From Conexibacter sp. (GTDB lineage: Bacteria; Actinomycetota; Thermoleophilia; Solirubrobacterales; 70-9), in assembly GCA_018263295.1 (NCBI GenBank), contig JADFCZ010000039.1:1-45581 (forward strand): 45,581 nt of DNA. Direction: 5' to 3'. Made by a program: the position numbers and the translations under genes. Each line of letters starts with the position of its first letter. Position 1 is the first letter of the stretch. This document shows, piece by piece, positions 1,962-15,612 of this stretch. Below the pieces are notes generated by a model that made no database searches, was not told where the DNA came from, and was given only the letters and a program-made list of their open reading frames with translations.

Positions 1962-2161
1962 CGCGCAGTCGGGGCCGGAGGGGGTTTGGGCTGAGAGGGG
2001 AGGTGGTCGGCTTGGGCCGCGTTCCACCGTTGGGTCGGGCGGCTGGGGTCGCTGTGGAGGATTAGGCCCGCATACGGGCGCGAACAGGGGTCAGCGCAGC
2101 CACGCTCCTCTCTCTCCCCCACCCCCGAGGAGCGCCGCGGCCCGCGGCGCCGGTGCAGGGA
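1962..2161. other. Intergenic part before hairpin element A
   Basis: Non-coding gap between the convergent glycosyltransferase and flippase genes. Apart from repeat element A (separate entry), it holds a perfect 8-bp GC hairpin at 2132-2150 (GCGCCGCG, loop GCC, CGCGGCGC). This could end the plus-strand glycosyltransferase transcript, but no T-run follows. Pyrimidine-rich sequence lies at about 2104-2126. I see no gene here. Confidence 0.4.
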
Positions 2162-2263: not shown

Positions 2264-3820
2264 CTAGAAGTTCCCCCTGTCCCGATCCCGGATCTCCTGC
2301 TCGTAAAGCTCCTCGGCCCTCGCCCGCTCGTCGCTCTCGCTCGCCCGCTCGCTGCGCATGGCGGCCAGGCGGTCGCGGAGGTTGCCCTCGCTGATCAGGG
2401 CCCTGACCTGGGCGCGCTCGTCGCGGTTGATGGCGCCGCCGAACCAGAGGACGACCGGGTAGAGGGCGAAGACGGCGAGGCGGGAGAGGAAGCCGGCGGC
2501 ACCCTCGGTCGGCAGGAGGAGGTCGCCGGCGGCGACGAGGACGACGCCGGCCCCGACGACGACCGCGAGGCGGCCCCACTGCCACGGGATCGGGAAGATC
2601 CGGCGGCTGACGCCGTAGATGAGGACGATCACGATCAGGTAGGAGACGATGAGGGCGACGCCGGCGCCGACGATCCCCCAGGCCGGGACGAGGATCAGGT
2701 TGAGGGCGACGTTGACGATCGTCGCGACGATCGTGACCGGGAAGTTGTATTCGGTCTTCCCGGTCCGGCCGAGGATGACGACGAGGGCGAGGTAGACGCC
2801 GTAGAGGGCGGCGCCGAGGGCGAGCGGGCCGATCGCCTCGTAGGAGTCGAAGAACTCCGGGGCGGCGAGGAGGCGGACGATCCAGCGCGCCTCGAGCCAC
2901 ATGCCGACGACGATGAAGCCGCAGAGCGCGGTGAAGGCTGTAACCACGACCGCGTAGGCGCGGCGGGCGTCCTCGTCGTCGCGGATCGAGTAGGCGAGCG
3001 GCGGCCAGGCGAGCTGGAAGCCGCGGACGACGACCTGGATCGCCTGGCTGAACTTGAACGCGAGCGCGTAGAGGCCGAGCTGGGCGGCGCCGAGGGCGTG
3101 GGAGATGATGATCCGGTCGATGAAGGCCAGCGAGTAGATCGAGATCTCGGCCGGCATCGTCGGCAGGCCGAAGCGGAACATCCGCCGCAGGAGCTCGCGC
3201 TCGGGTCGCAGGCTGAGCCGCTTGCGCTCGGCCCAGATCAGCCAGAGCAGGAACGGCAGCCCGGCGAGGTAGGAGCCGAGCAGCAGCCCCTCGGCTCCGG
3301 CGTCGAGGCCGACGACGAGCGTCACCGTCAGCGGGATCGCGAGCAGGACGTTGCCGATCGTGAACGCGAAGTAGGCCTTGGCGCGCTCGTCGAGCCGGAA
3401 CAGGGTGACCATGTACTCGTAGAGCGTCAGCACCCAGAGGCCGCCGATCGCGATCCGGACGAGCACGGGGTCGAGCGGGTCGCCGCTGATCAGGTCGCCG
3501 ATCTGTGAGGCGAACGGGAGCGCGACGACGGCCGCGACGGTCGTCGTCCAGAACAGCGCCCCGAAGCCGGTGGCGATCACCCGGTCGCCCCGCTCCCCGG
3601 GCAGGTAGTAGAAGCGCAGCAGCGCCTCGATCAGCCCGAGCCGGATGACGATGCTGGCGGCGACGACGGTCGAGAACAGGAGCTCGGCCTGCCCGTAGTC
3701 GGCGGTCGTGAGGTACCGCGTGTACAGCGGCAGCAGGAGTACCGCGAGCACCTTCGAGGCGACGCTCGCAGCGGTGTATGCGAAGCCGGTGGTGGCGAGT
3801 CGGCGGAGGTAGTCGAGCAC
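2264..3820 (-). CDS. Wzx-type polysaccharide flippase
   Basis: A 518-residue multi-pass membrane protein of the MOP flippase superfamily. It is expected to move lipid-linked oligosaccharides from the inner to the outer face of the cytoplasmic membrane. The N-terminus (YLRRLATTGFAYTAASVASK, then LPLYTRYLTTADYGQAEL) is the usual opening of polysaccharide biosynthesis export proteins, and hydrophobic spans continue to about residue 460. The C-terminus is charged and probably cytoplasmic. The start is GTG at 3820, 12 nt after the stop of the upstream Wzy-like gene, with GGAG ahead of it. It is the last gene of a six-gene operon and is followed by hairpin element A. The substrate is unknown. Confidence 0.88.
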   Translation of the reverse strand: MLDYLRRLATTGFAYTAASVASKVLAVLLLPLYTRYLTTADYGQAELLFSTVVAASIVIRLGLIEALLRFYYLPGERGDRVIATGFGALFWTTTVAAVVALPFASQIGDLISGDPLDPVLVRIAIGGLWVLTLYEYMVTLFRLDERAKAYFAFTIGNVLLAIPLTVTLVVGLDAGAEGLLLGSYLAGLPFLLWLIWAERKRLSLRPERELLRRMFRFGLPTMPAEISIYSLAFIDRIIISHALGAAQLGLYALAFKFSQAIQVVVRGFQLAWPPLAYSIRDDEDARRAYAVVVTAFTALCGFIVVGMWLEARWIVRLLAAPEFFDSYEAIGPLALGAALYGVYLALVVILGRTGKTEYNFPVTIVATIVNVALNLILVPAWGIVGAGVALIVSYLIVIVLIYGVSRRIFPIPWQWGRLAVVVGAGVVLVAAGDLLLPTEGAAGFLSRLAVFALYPVVLWFGGAINRDERAQVRALISEGNLRDRLAAMRSERASESDERARAEELYEQEIRDRDRGNF

Positions 3821-3832
3821 CGGCCGCTCCGA

Positions 3833-5311
3833 TCAGCCGCTCGGTCGCGGGACGCGGACGAGGGCGGCCCCGGCGATGGCGAGCACCGCCCAGGTGATCG
3901 GGTCGATGAGGAAGGCCGCGTAGCCGAGGCTGTGGACGAACATCAGCGCGTAGATCGCAAGCAGGGTCGCAGCCAGGGCGGTCCCCCGGGCGCGGCCGCC
4001 GAGGGCGAGGCCGGTCGCCGAGAGCAGGGCGCCGAACGTGACCACCAGGAAGGCGGCGTAGGCGACCAGCCCGATCGCGCCCTGCTCGGCGGCGACCGTG
4101 ACCGGTTCGGTGTGGCTCTCGGCCGCGAAGCCCTCGCCCTCGTAGTAGCGCGCCGTGAACTCGTCGCCGAATGCGCCCGACCCGATCCCGGCGACCGGGT
4201 GGTCCCGGGCGATCTCGAGCCCGCCGTCGATCAGGCCCGAGCGGCCGCTGGTCGTCTCGCTGCTCAATCCGCCGCCGGCGATCAGCGCCATCGCCGCCGC
4301 GAGCGCGATCGCGGTGGCGACGCCGGCGCCGACCCCGCGGGCGACGCCCCAGCGGGCGGCGACGAGTACCAGCAGCCCGGCGAAGAGCGCCAGCGTGCTC
4401 GTCTGCGAGTAGCTGATCAGCAGCAGGACGAGGAGCGCGGCGAAGCACGCCGCCGCACCCCAGACCTCACGCGGGCGTCGGCCATAGGCGACCACCGCGG
4501 CGAGGACCGTCATCGTCACCGCCAGATAACGGCCGAGGATGTTCGGATCCCAGAACAGGGAGTTGACCCGGAAGTAGGTGTGAGCCTCATTGCCCGAGAT
4601 CACCTTGTCGTTCCAGAGCAGCTCGCCGGAGACGTACTCGGCGACGCCGACCACGAGGAACAACAGCCCCTCGATCGCCAGCACCAGGACCACGGTCCGG
4701 AGCAGGGTCCGGTCCCAGTCGACGTCGGAGAGCAACAGGTAGAGCGCGGCGAACGGGGCGATGAAGAAGGCGACGTTCTGGAGGCCGTGGGTGATGTCGT
4801 CGGCGTAGGCGAGCTGGAGCGCGTAGAGGACGACGACCCCCGCGAGCGCCCAGCCGACCGCGCCGATCCAGGGACCGCGGTCGGTCGCCTCGTCCTCGGG
4901 TGCCGGGTCGCGCCAGGCGCCCCAGACGGTGGCGGCGAGCCCGCCGGCGATCACCGCGTAGAGCGGCAGCAGCAGGTTGGCGTCGCCGCCTCCGAGGTCG
5001 ATCGGGACCCGGAACGGCATCGCCGCGATCAGCGCCGGTGCGAGCCACAGCGGCTTGCGACGGAAGAACCAGCCGAGGACGAACAACCCGATCACGGCGG
5101 CAACGACCGCGGCGAGCAGGAGCGACGGCCGGTCGCGGAGGTCGGCGATCCTGTCGCTGTCCCAGCTGTCGGCGAGGACGAGGGCCGGCGCCAGGAGGAC
5201 GGCCGCGGTCAGCGCGCCGATCCGGACGCGGCGATTGAACGCGGGAACGACGCCCGCTGCGGCGAGCAGAGCGCAGACCACGGTGGCGATCCAGAGCAGC
5301 GGCGCGTCCAT
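3833..5311 (-). CDS. O-antigen ligase/polymerase family (Wzy-like) membrane protein
   Basis: A 492-residue membrane protein with about a dozen hydrophobic spans, likely a polymerase or ligase of lipid-linked repeat units at the outer face of the membrane. The signature is the Wzy_C region near residues 365-415: DHPVAGIGSGAFGDEF, then SHTEPVTVAAEQGAIGL. This is the usual HPxxGxGxG...H...EQGxxGL pattern of the family, with the large outer loop before it. The ATG at 5311 overlaps the stop of the FlgD-like gene by one base (TGATG), so the two are probably translationally coupled. Polymerase and ligase cannot be separated by sequence. The adjacent flippase favours a Wzx/Wzy pathway. Confidence 0.85.
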   Translation of the reverse strand: MDAPLLWIATVVCALLAAAGVVPAFNRRVRIGALTAAVLLAPALVLADSWDSDRIADLRDRPSLLLAAVVAAVIGLFVLGWFFRRKPLWLAPALIAAMPFRVPIDLGGGDANLLLPLYAVIAGGLAATVWGAWRDPAPEDEATDRGPWIGAVGWALAGVVVLYALQLAYADDITHGLQNVAFFIAPFAALYLLLSDVDWDRTLLRTVVLVLAIEGLLFLVVGVAEYVSGELLWNDKVISGNEAHTYFRVNSLFWDPNILGRYLAVTMTVLAAVVAYGRRPREVWGAAACFAALLVLLLISYSQTSTLALFAGLLVLVAARWGVARGVGAGVATAIALAAAMALIAGGGLSSETTSGRSGLIDGGLEIARDHPVAGIGSGAFGDEFTARYYEGEGFAAESHTEPVTVAAEQGAIGLVAYAAFLVVTFGALLSATGLALGGRARGTALAATLLAIYALMFVHSLGYAAFLIDPITWAVLAIAGAALVRVPRPSG

Positions 5312-12853: not shown

Positions 12854-14326
12854 ATGATCGGATCGATGCTCTCCGGGCGCTACCGCCTGGAATCGAAGCT
12901 CGGCAGCGGCGGGATGTCGACCGTGTACCTGGCGGTCGACGAGACGCTCGGGCGGCACGTCGCGATCAAGGTGCTGCACGGCGAGATCTCCGACGACGAG
13001 GATCAGCTCGAGCGCTTCCGTCGCGAGGCGCGGGCCGTCGCCCAACTCTCGCACCCCAACCTCGTCGGGGTGATCGACGCCGGCGAGGAGGGCGGCCGGC
13101 CGTTCATCGTCTTCGAGTACGTCCCCGGCCAGACGCTGAAGCAGCGGATCTCGAGCGAGGGCCGGCTGCCGCTCGACGAGGCGACCGCCTACGCCATCGA
13201 GATCGGCCGCGGGCTCCAGGCCGCCCACCAGGCGCGCCTCGTCCACCGCGACGTCAAGCCGCAGAACGTCCTGATCGATCCCGAGGGGCGGGCGAAGATC
13301 ACCGACTTCGGGATCGCGCTGTCGCTCGAGGCCCACGGGCTGACCGCGACCGGCCGCGTCCTCGGCACCACCGACTACGTCTCCCCCGAGCAGGCGATGG
13401 GGAAGGAGATCGACGCGCGGACCGACGTCTATTCGCTCGGGATCCTGCTCTACGAGATGCTGACCGGCGAGGTCCCGTTCAAGGCGGAGACCCAGGTCGG
13501 CGTCGCGATGAAGCACGTCAACGAGATGGTGCCGAACGTCCAGCGGCGGCGCCCCGACGCCTCGGCGGTCCTCGCGGCGGCGGTCGAGCGGGCGACGGCC
13601 AAGGAGCCCAAGGACCGTTACCGCGACATGAACGAGTTCCTCGGCGACCTCGAGCACGCGCTCGAGGTCGAGGTCGCCCGCGCCGGCGGCGCGACGGGCG
13701 AGGCGACCTCAGTCCTCGACTCGGTGCCCGAGAAGCGCCGCCGGGTCCTGACCCGGCGGCGGATCTCCTGGGCCGGGGTCCTGCTGCTCGTCGCCGCGGC
13801 GGCGACCGCGATCGCGATCGCCGCCTTCAGCGGGAACGAGGGTCCGTCGAAGGAGCCTCCGCCCGACAGCACGACGAGCGACGTGATCGAGATCCAGTCG
13901 GCGACGGACTTCGATCCCACCAGTTCCGGCGGCGACGACGAGGAGCACTCCGAGGAGACGGGCCTGGCCTTCGACGGCATCCCCTCGACCGGCTGGAGCA
14001 CCGAGAACTACACGGCGGGCCTGGAGGGCGCCGCCAAGGACGGCGTCGGCCTCTACGTCGACGCGGGGACCTCCGTCACGCCGAGCCAGATGGGGCTGGA
14101 GACCGGTGGCGGCGGCTGGACCTTCGAGGTCTACGGCTCGAACCTGAAGTCCCCGCCGACCGACATCGCGGGCTGGGGCGATCCGCTGACGAGCGAGCTG
14201 ACGGCCGAGTCGAAGCAGGTGGTCGACCTCGACACGAGCGAGCCGAACCGGTTCTTCCTGATCTGGATCACCAGCGTCGAGGCGGGCGAGCCGGCGGAGA
14301 TCTTCGACGTCCGGCTGCTGGGCTGA
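12854..14326 (+). CDS. Membrane Ser/Thr protein kinase with discoidin-like outer domain
   Basis: A Hanks-type kinase of 490 residues from the ATG at 12854; a TTG at 12842 is an alternative start and neither has a clear ribosome-binding site. Kinase landmarks are the glycine loop LGSGGMSTV (16-24), Lys39, HRDVKPQN (131-138) and DFG (151-153). One membrane span lies near residues 300-325. The outer region has an acidic linker and a beta-rich domain with the pattern FDGIPSTGWSTENY and VGLYVDAG. This resembles the galactose-binding/discoidin-like tail seen on some actinobacterial MurJ proteins and kinases. It is not part of the pknB operon. The gene is followed 12 nt later by hairpin element C. 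The signal sensed is unknown. Confidence 0.88.
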   Translation: MIGSMLSGRYRLESKLGSGGMSTVYLAVDETLGRHVAIKVLHGEISDDEDQLERFRREARAVAQLSHPNLVGVIDAGEEGGRPFIVFEYVPGQTLKQRISSEGRLPLDEATAYAIEIGRGLQAAHQARLVHRDVKPQNVLIDPEGRAKITDFGIALSLEAHGLTATGRVLGTTDYVSPEQAMGKEIDARTDVYSLGILLYEMLTGEVPFKAETQVGVAMKHVNEMVPNVQRRRPDASAVLAAAVERATAKEPKDRYRDMNEFLGDLEHALEVEVARAGGATGEATSVLDSVPEKRRRVLTRRRISWAGVLLLVAAAATAIAIAAFSGNEGPSKEPPPDSTTSDVIEIQSATDFDPTSSGGDDEEHSEETGLAFDGIPSTGWSTENYTAGLEGAAKDGVGLYVDAGTSVTPSQMGLETGGGGWTFEVYGSNLKSPPTDIAGWGDPLTSELTAESKQVVDLDTSEPNRFFLIWITSVEAGEPAEIFDVRLLG

Positions 14327-14338
14327 TCCCGTCCCCAC

Positions 14339-14426
14339 GGCCCGGGGGAGGGGATCACCGGCGGGACCTATTGCAGCTGGGATTCTTGATGAGCGCGGTC
14401 CCTCCGGCGCTCCCCTCCCCCGGGCC
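14339..14426 (+). repeat. Hairpin repeat element, copy C (30-28-30)
   Basis: Arms are 14339-14368 and 14397-14426, and the loop is 14369-14396. In kinase-mRNA sense the loop begins TATTGCAGC, has CTTGATG and ends GCGC, as in copies A and B. The arms differ at many positions from those of A and B, yet pair with each other at 27 of 30 positions plus one G-U. The 5 bp closing the loop (GGACC/GGTCC) are shared by all three copies. It begins 12 nt after the stop codon of the kinase gene. Confidence 0.85.
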
Positions 14427-14473
14427 TCCCGCGCCGGCCGGCGAGCGCCGCGGACGCCGGATCTGCTGAGAGC

Positions 14474-14512
14474 GGGTGCAATTCCTCGGTCCCGGGCCGA
14501 GTAATCGCACCC
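14474..14512. other. Hairpin with symmetric internal loop
   Basis: GGGTGC pairs with GCACCC (6 bp), then there is a 5x5 internal loop (AATTC/TAATC), then CTCGG pairs with CCGAG around a 7-nt loop. It lies between hairpin copies C and B in the gap between two convergent genes. Nothing else is seen in 14427-14546. Confidence 0.45.
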
Positions 14513-14546
14513 AATTCGGCCTGCTCGCGTGGCGGCGGTGCGGAGA

Positions 14547-14634
14547 GGCCGGGGGCCGGGGTGCCCGATCCGGACCGCGCACATCAAGCTTCCCAGCTGC
14601 AATAGGTCCGGATCGGGTGCCGCGGCCCCCGGCC
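14547..14634 (-). repeat. Hairpin repeat element, copy B (30-28-30)
   Basis: Arms are 14547-14576 and 14605-14634, and the loop is 14577-14604. The left arm is identical to that of copy A 12 kb away. The right arm differs by one base, leaving one mismatch. The loop differs from copy A at three of 28 positions. On the minus strand it begins 12 nt after the ddl stop codon. Copies B and C face each other in the same 320-bp gap. Confidence 0.85.
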
Positions 14635-14646
14635 GGCGTCTCGGCA

Positions 14647-15612
14647 CTAGAACCGGTACGAACGCTCCGCCGCGTAACGCTCCAGCGCCAGCTCCACCAG
14701 CCGCTCGCAGAGCGCCGGGTAGGCGACGCCCGAGGCCTCGAACAGCTTCGAGAAGACGCTCGTCTCGGTGAAGCCCGGGATCGTGTTGAGCTCGTTGACG
14801 AGGACCTCGCCGTCGTCCATCACGAAGAAGTCGCAGCGGGCGAGGCCGGTGCAACCGCAGGAGCGGTAGACGTCGGCGGCGAGCTCGCGGACCCGGGCGA
14901 TCGCCTCGTCGCCGATCGGGGCGGGGACGACGAGCTCCATCCCGCCGGGCTCGTACTTGGCGGCGTAGTGGTACCAGTCGGCCTTGATCACGAGCTGGCC
15001 CGGCAGCGAGGTCTCCGGCACCTCGTTGCCGATCACCGAGCACTCGACCTCGAGGCCTTCGCAGTGGGCCTCGACGATCACGCGCGGGTCGTGCTCGAGC
15101 GCGGTCTCGACGGCCGCCTCGAGGCCGCCGGGCTCGGCGACCTTGAGGATCCCGACGCTGGAGCCGAGCCGCGACGGCTTCACCCAGACCGGCATCCCGA
15201 GCTCGTGGACCCGCTCGCGCCAGCCCTCCTCGCCGGCCTGGCAGAAGCCCACCTGGGCGATGCCGCGCTCGGCCATCAGGCGCTTGAAGATCAGCTTGTC
15301 GATCGTCACCGCGGCGGCGAGGACGCCGGGGCCGACGTAGGGGACGTCGAGGCACTCCAGAAGTCCCTGGACCGTCCCGTCCTCGCCGAAGGGGCCGTGG
15401 AGGACGGGGAAGGCGACGTCGCACCCGAGCAGGCCCGCGGCGGGCCGGAGATCGATCTCCTCCCCCCCGCTGAGCCAGCGGCCGTCGGGCTCGATGACGA
15501 CGTCGGTCGTCTCGTAACCGGCGGCGCTCAGGCCCTCGGCGACCGCGGCGCCGGAGCGCAGCGAGACCTCGTGCTCGCTCGAGCGCCCGCCGCGGATCAC
15601 CGCGACCCTCAA
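14647..15612 (-). CDS. ddl: D-alanine--D-alanine ligase
   Basis: ATP-grasp ligase that makes the D-Ala-D-Ala dipeptide for peptidoglycan precursors in the cytoplasm; 321 residues, normal for the family. Landmarks are VAVIRGGRSSEHEVSL at the N-terminus, VLHGPFGEDGTVQG near 70-83, the ATP-grasp segment VKPSRLGSSVGI, and NELNTIPGFTETS with the magnesium-binding Glu and Asn. The start is TTG at 15612 and overlaps the pknB stop by 4 nt (TTGA), so translation is probably coupled. Its place after pknB puts a precursor enzyme directly downstream of the kinase that senses peptidoglycan. Hairpin element B follows. Confidence 0.96.
   Translation of the reverse strand: MRVAVIRGGRSSEHEVSLRSGAAVAEGLSAAGYETTDVVIEPDGRWLSGGEEIDLRPAAGLLGCDVAFPVLHGPFGEDGTVQGLLECLDVPYVGPGVLAAAVTIDKLIFKRLMAERGIAQVGFCQAGEEGWRERVHELGMPVWVKPSRLGSSVGILKVAEPGGLEAAVETALEHDPRVIVEAHCEGLEVECSVIGNEVPETSLPGQLVIKADWYHYAAKYEPGGMELVVPAPIGDEAIARVRELAADVYRSCGCTGLARCDFFVMDDGEVLVNELNTIPGFTETSVFSKLFEASGVAYPALCERLVELALERYAAERSYRF

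What the first reader, a model, noticed from the sequence alone, without database searches (positions are those of the whole stretch)
14339..14426. Stem of copy C has changed on both sides and still pairs
The arms of copy C are clearly different from those of A and B (C-rich GGCCCGGGGGAGGGG against GGCCGGGGGCCGGGG), yet the two C arms pair at 27 of 30 positions plus one G-U. In copies A and B the only two shared differences between arms are an adjacent T-G/G-T pair, which RNA tolerates. Compensation plus wobble tolerance points to selection on an RNA structure rather than a DNA-only repeat. The GGACC/GGTCC pair closing the loop is invariant.
Basis: seen in the sequence. Interest (0 to 1): 0.7.

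Follow-up and report, generated by a model that had tools for sequence, protein, structure and literature searches.

The report
REP-like hairpin repeats ending convergent genes
The hairpin is one of six copies of a small, genus-specific repeat placed just after genes that face each other; its stem has been rewritten many times while still pairing, which shows that the folded form matters, but the sequence does not prove that the folded molecule is RNA.

Summary
Copy C (14339-14426) is a 30-28-30 nt palindrome with 27/30 Watson-Crick pairs. It belongs to a family with six copies in this genome and five, one of them degenerate, in two congeners; no other genome searched has it. In nine aligned copies 16 of 25 stem pairs changed on both sides (44 cells, against 14.2 in shuffles and 6-14 in slid controls). 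The ddl-linked copy is orthologous in three species, with a largely different but still paired stem. The wobble argument fails: none of 225 stem cells is G-U, and C's 'G-U' is A·C on the strand named. Mismatches are strongly strand-biased (25 of 27 contain C on the loop strand) and cluster 12-18 bp from the loop, so one single strand seems constrained, RNA or ssDNA. At all four assessable gene pairs the hairpins lie between convergent genes, just after a stop codon, loop on that gene's sense strand. Best reading: a low-copy REP-like repeat, probably transcribed as a 3'-end/boundary hairpin. It lacks the REP tag, a RAYT transposase and a U-tract. New variant of a known kind; function untested.

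The parts
14339..14368 (+). copy C, 5' arm (30 nt)
14369..14396 (+). copy C, 28-nt loop TATTGCAGCTGGGATTCTTGATGAGCGC
14397..14426 (+). copy C, 3' arm (30 nt)
14547..14634 (-). copy A, same element inverted; loop 14577-14604 read on the - strand, just after the ddl stop codon
2162..2249 (-). copy B, same element; loop 2192-2219 read on the - strand, just after the stop of the polysaccharide-export gene
12854..14326 (+). Ser/Thr protein kinase gene; its stop codon is 12 nt before copy C
   Evidence: PF00069, 3.8e-53
14647..15612 (-). D-Ala-D-Ala ligase gene (ddl), convergent with the kinase gene; its stop is 12 nt before copy A
   Evidence: PF07478, 1.3e-56
2264..3820 (-). polysaccharide biosynthesis/flippase-type gene ending 14 nt before copy B
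   Evidence: PF01943
996..1961 (+). glycosyltransferase gene convergent with the flippase-type gene; its stop is about 200 nt from copy B
   Evidence: PF00535

Best explanation
Copy C is one unit of a small, genus-restricted family of dispersed palindromic elements (about 88 nt: roughly 30-bp stem, 27-28 nt asymmetric loop), comparable in genomic behaviour to REP elements. SHOWN: loop ends (TATTGCAGC...GCRC) and closing GGACC/GGTCC are conserved; the stem is free to change if both sides change; mismatches cluster 12-18 bp from the loop and fall almost wholly in one strand class; copies lie between convergent genes, about 5-31 nt after one gene's stop codon, with the loop on that gene's sense strand. 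INFERRED: the element is transcribed at the 3' ends of mRNAs and acts as a boundary hairpin, ending or blocking transcription into the facing gene and/or shielding the 3' end from exonucleases, with loop and mid-stem defect recognised by an unknown factor. Copies were gained and lost by duplication or gene conversion; no mobilising enzyme was found.
For: Six copies in G000. Orthologous ddl-3' copies in three congeneric species with largely different, still-pairing stems. Shared FtsX-permease/luciferase-like-oxidoreductase locus in G000 and HKST-UBA61. 16/25 pairs changed on both sides, 0/500 shuffles as high, slid structures far lower. Arms of one copy pair at 17-18 of the outer 20 positions, against 9.8 when arms of different copies are mixed. 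Mismatches on the loop strand: 25 of 27 contain C (A·C, C·U, C·C), 2 are G·A or G·G; 18:2 for distinct position/type events, p about 2e-4; 21 of 27 at positions 12-18. All copies with known neighbours lie between convergent genes. Published REP biology gives the same placement: near 3' ends of convergent ORFs, opposite orientations, probably transcribed (PMC3733652).
Against: No U-tract or consensus terminator, so classical intrinsic termination is not indicated. Transcription was not observed. The more stable strand is antisense to the adjacent gene (8/10 copies with RNA parameters, 9/10 with DNA parameters), which does not fit a simple sense-strand 3'UTR stabiliser. Copy C191 lies upstream of a GMC oxidoreductase start, not after an identified stop. 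Some syntenic loci are empty in relatives, so the element is dispensable there.
Confidence: 0.5

Rival explanations
1. DNA-level palindromic mobile repeat: a non-autonomous mobile hairpin handled as single-stranded DNA by an unidentified enzyme. Arms are kept matched by intrastrand template switching or gene conversion, and intergenic 3' ends are simply the tolerated sites.
For: Near-identical stems in copies A, B and C100 (20-22 of 25 pairs identical pairwise) indicate recent copying. Presence/absence varies at syntenic loci. No G-U cells at all suits arm correction at the DNA level. The more stable strand is the same in nearly all copies.
Against: No Y1/RAYT transposase in any of the three genomes (G000 is only about 90% complete). 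No target-site duplication seen by eye. The loop is on the sense strand of the nearest gene wherever that gene is known, which suggests a transcription-related role. The ddl copy has persisted in three species.
Confidence: 0.3
2. Cis-acting RNA with a specific protein or ligand (autoregulatory or riboswitch-like) whose apical loop is the binding site.
For: Conserved loop ends and closing pairs while the rest changes; predicted inner UGC/GCR pairs behind an asymmetric internal loop.
Against: 3' position rather than a leader, unrelated neighbouring genes, no Rfam family above threshold (one search gives only long-hairpin miRNA models far below gathering scores).
Confidence: 0.12
3. Ordinary GC-rich terminators that resemble each other only through composition or recent duplication.
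For: 3' placement between convergent genes.
Against: Exact loop motif in six copies with reversed-pattern control 0; no comparable palindromes elsewhere in the window; no U-tract; loop ends conserved at orthologous sites with changed stems.
Confidence: 0.08

Closest known systems
REP elements (repetitive extragenic palindromes; GTAG and CGTC super-families, BIMEs/REPINs)
   Same: Dispersed intergenic palindromes close to 3' ends between convergent genes, pairs in opposite orientation, probably transcribed (PMC3733652).
   Different: About 88 nt instead of 20-40; no GTAG/CGTC tag at the palindrome ends; 1-6 copies instead of high copy number; no RAYT found; conserved loop with variable stem.
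Intrinsic (Rho-independent) or bidirectional terminators
   Same: GC-rich hairpin just after the stop codon between convergent genes.
   Different: No U-tract, a 27-28 nt loop with conserved sequence, a far longer stem.
attC sites of integrons (from general knowledge, not tested)
   Same: A single-stranded hairpin in which unpaired bases make the two strands unequal.
   Different: In attC the outer ends are conserved and the terminal part varies; here it is the reverse. An integron integrase was not searched for.

Membership tests
REP elements (GTAG/CGTC) | extragenic palindrome dispersed in a genome | tested here: met
   Six intergenic copies in G000
REP elements (GTAG/CGTC) | unpaired GTAG or CGTC motif at one end | tested here: not met
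   Sequences at both palindrome ends of each copy read by eye; no such tag adjoining the palindrome
REP elements (GTAG/CGTC) | 20-40 bp and high copy number | tested here: not met
   78-90 nt; 6, 4 and 1 copies
REP elements (GTAG/CGTC) | RAYT (Y1_Tnp) gene in the genome, for the GTAG class | tested here: not met
   PF01797: 0 of 3 genomes, 5 of 14 control genomes positive; G000 is about 90% complete
REP elements (GTAG/CGTC) | placement near 3' ends, convergent or codirectional genes | tested here: met
   compare PMC3733652
Intrinsic terminator | hairpin followed by a U-tract | tested here: not met
   0 found in 14200-14800; the flanks of the other copies show none by eye
Known Rfam RNA family | score above gathering threshold | tested here: not met
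   Only a tRNA in the window; below-threshold miRNA-hairpin matches only
Structured RNA under selection | covariation above controls | tested here: met
   0/500 shuffles; slid structures far lower. Only nine sequences; relatedness not modelled by an R-scape-type test
Structured RNA under selection | G-U preferred over A·C on the transcribed strand | tested here: not met
   A·C 13, G·U 0 in register on the strand sense to the adjacent gene; the opposite strand shows the reverse
Structured RNA under selection | transcript exists and folds | not testable with these tools
   no RNA data

The most novel reading that the evidence does not exclude
A genus-specific, strand-specific boundary element: its function resides in the single strand antisense to the adjacent gene (RNA read through from the facing gene, or ssDNA), recognised through a fixed apical loop and a fixed mid-stem defect while the stem sequence is free, and spread without any known transposase.
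Probability: 0.2. Interest if true: 0.6.

Novelty: new variant of a known kind. Interest (0 to 1): 0.42.

Why it matters
It is a clean natural example of palindromes whose stems are replaced while loop and architecture stay, at orthologous sites in three species. The mismatch strand-bias is a cheap test for which single strand of a repeat is constrained and could be applied to other REP-like families. It may also bear on how convergent genes are insulated in high-GC actinobacteria whose 3' hairpins lack U-tracts.

Tried and rejected
Known RNA family (Rfam): only generic long-hairpin matches far below threshold. RAYT/IS200-type mobilisation: no Y1 transposase. Spread beyond the genus: loop pattern absent from the other 231 genomes of the order; the shorter pattern is in only 3 of 399 class genomes, all of this genus; covariance model in only 3 of 50 family genomes, all of this genus; no match in plasmids, only a 25-nt match at E 0.8 in one phage record; the Mesorhizobium and IMG/VR pattern hits have no matching stem and are taken as chance. 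Rolling-circle nick-site resemblance (CTTGATR in the loop) considered and dropped because the ddl copies of both congeners lack it. Fixed orientation to replication rejected: copies C and A are inverted neighbours. Kink-turn considered: no tandem G·A behind the internal loop. Literature searches on stem-loop repeat families and on actinobacterial terminators gave nothing closer than the REP papers.

Full report
What is there. Copy C at 14339-14426 is a 30-28-30 hairpin with 27 of 30 Watson-Crick pairs. Copies A (14547-14634) and B (2162-2249) carry the same loop on the - strand. The three are the only gapless palindromes of score 15 or more in the 45.6 kb window. In 377 kb sampled from this genome (which includes the known loci) six of eight palindromes of score 16 or more are members of the family; none were found in 2 x 200 kb of first-order Markov sequence.

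Family. The loop motif TTGCAGCTGGGANNCTTGATG has six true copies in the window's genome (a seventh hit, with three mismatches, has no matching stem). With the shorter motif GGACCTATTGCAGC...GGTC and a covariance model, relatives appear only in the two other genomes of the genus held. No other member was found among the other genomes searched in the order, class and family, nor in viral contigs, plasmids or phages apart from hits taken as chance.

Orthology. The ddl-3' copy is present in all three species. TATTGCAGC, GCRC and GGACC/GGTCC are kept; the middle of the loop and much of the stem differ between G000 and the other two. The permease/luciferase-like-oxidoreductase gene pair carries one copy in G000 and two, one per gene, in G028; the permease 3' flank is empty in G027. 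The SDR/MFS pair carries a copy in G000 and none at the syntenic place in G028; the flippase/glycosyltransferase pair carries a copy in G000 and none in G027. So copies persist at some sites and come and go at others.

Covariation. On nine copies, 16 of 25 pairs have changes on both sides (44 cells; shuffles 14.2, s.d. 2.7, 0 of 500 as high; slid structures 6-14 cells). Cells paired: 89.3% against 28-56% when slid. Every copy has 22-23 of 25 pairs. Mixing arms of different copies gives 9.8 of 20 outer pairs, own arms 17-18. Copies are related, so these are not independent events, but the comparison of G000 ddl with G028 ddl alone has 7 compensated pairs, 14 unchanged, 4 broken and none one-sided. 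The finder's own refutation criterion is therefore not met, within the limit that no phylogeny-aware test on a large alignment was possible.

Wobble. Not one of 225 cells is a G-U pair. On the strand carrying TATTGCAGC, in-register mismatches are A·C 13, C·U 10, C·C 2, G·A 1, G·G 1. Under strand-neutral decay C-type and G-type mismatches should be equal; counted as distinct position/type events the split is 18:2 (p about 2e-4). They cluster 12-18 pairs from the loop (21 of 27; 14 of 20 distinct events, p about 0.0015). Both the choice of classes and of the 12-18 range was made after seeing the data, so these p values are optimistic. Two readings fit: the opposite strand, antisense to the adjacent gene, is kept stable (it shows G·U, G·A and G·G instead, and folds better in 8/10 copies as RNA and 9/10 as DNA), or the sense strand must keep a real defect in mid-stem. 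Both mean that one single strand is constrained, which argues against a strand-symmetric cruciform or duplex site. A strand-specific mutational or mismatch-repair bias is a third possibility that was not excluded.

Setting. Where both neighbours are known, every copy lies between convergent genes: kinase/ddl, flippase/glycosyltransferase, SDR/MFS, permease/luciferase-like oxidoreductase. In these the loop is on the sense strand of the nearer gene, about 5-31 nt after its stop codon (coordinates read by eye). C191 is the exception: it lies upstream of a GMC oxidoreductase start near a contig end, and its other neighbour is unknown. There is no U-tract.

Mechanism. The most likely role is that of a REP-like repeat transcribed as a boundary or 3'-end hairpin. 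Placement and opposite-orientation pairs agree with published REP biology (PMC3733652). Membership in the described REP super-families fails on tag, size, copy number and RAYT. The transcription step, the blocking or protecting step and the recognising factor are inferences.

Verdict. It is a new, small family with an unusual conserved-loop/variable-stem layout, of moderate interest.

Noticed in passing
window 2054-2080 (+); G000:C100 2654-2680; also C67, C151, C204: A second dispersed hairpin motif, GTGGAGGATTANGCCCGCATACGGGCG, has five copies (up to 3 mismatches) in this genome and none in the two congeners; two of the copies lie beside copies of the present element.
   Followed up: partly
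window 14476-14515: A separate smaller inverted repeat (GGGTGCAATTCCTCGGTCCCGGGCCGAGTAATCGCACCC) lies between copies C and A.
   Followed up: no
L095 (G028:C250) about 193-238: Hairpin ACCGATCGG...CCCGATCGGT with a different loop after the glycosyltransferase gene in HKST-UBA61, near the contig end.
   Followed up: no
L076 about 4710-4758 (G000:C191 end): The contig ends in an inverted repeat CTCGTGGGCGGA...TCCGCCCACGAG.
   Followed up: no
L145 1994-2074, L140 14058-14119 (G027): The congener G027 has about one strong palindrome per 40 kb with other loops, so long hairpins are not unique to this family there.
   Followed up: partly
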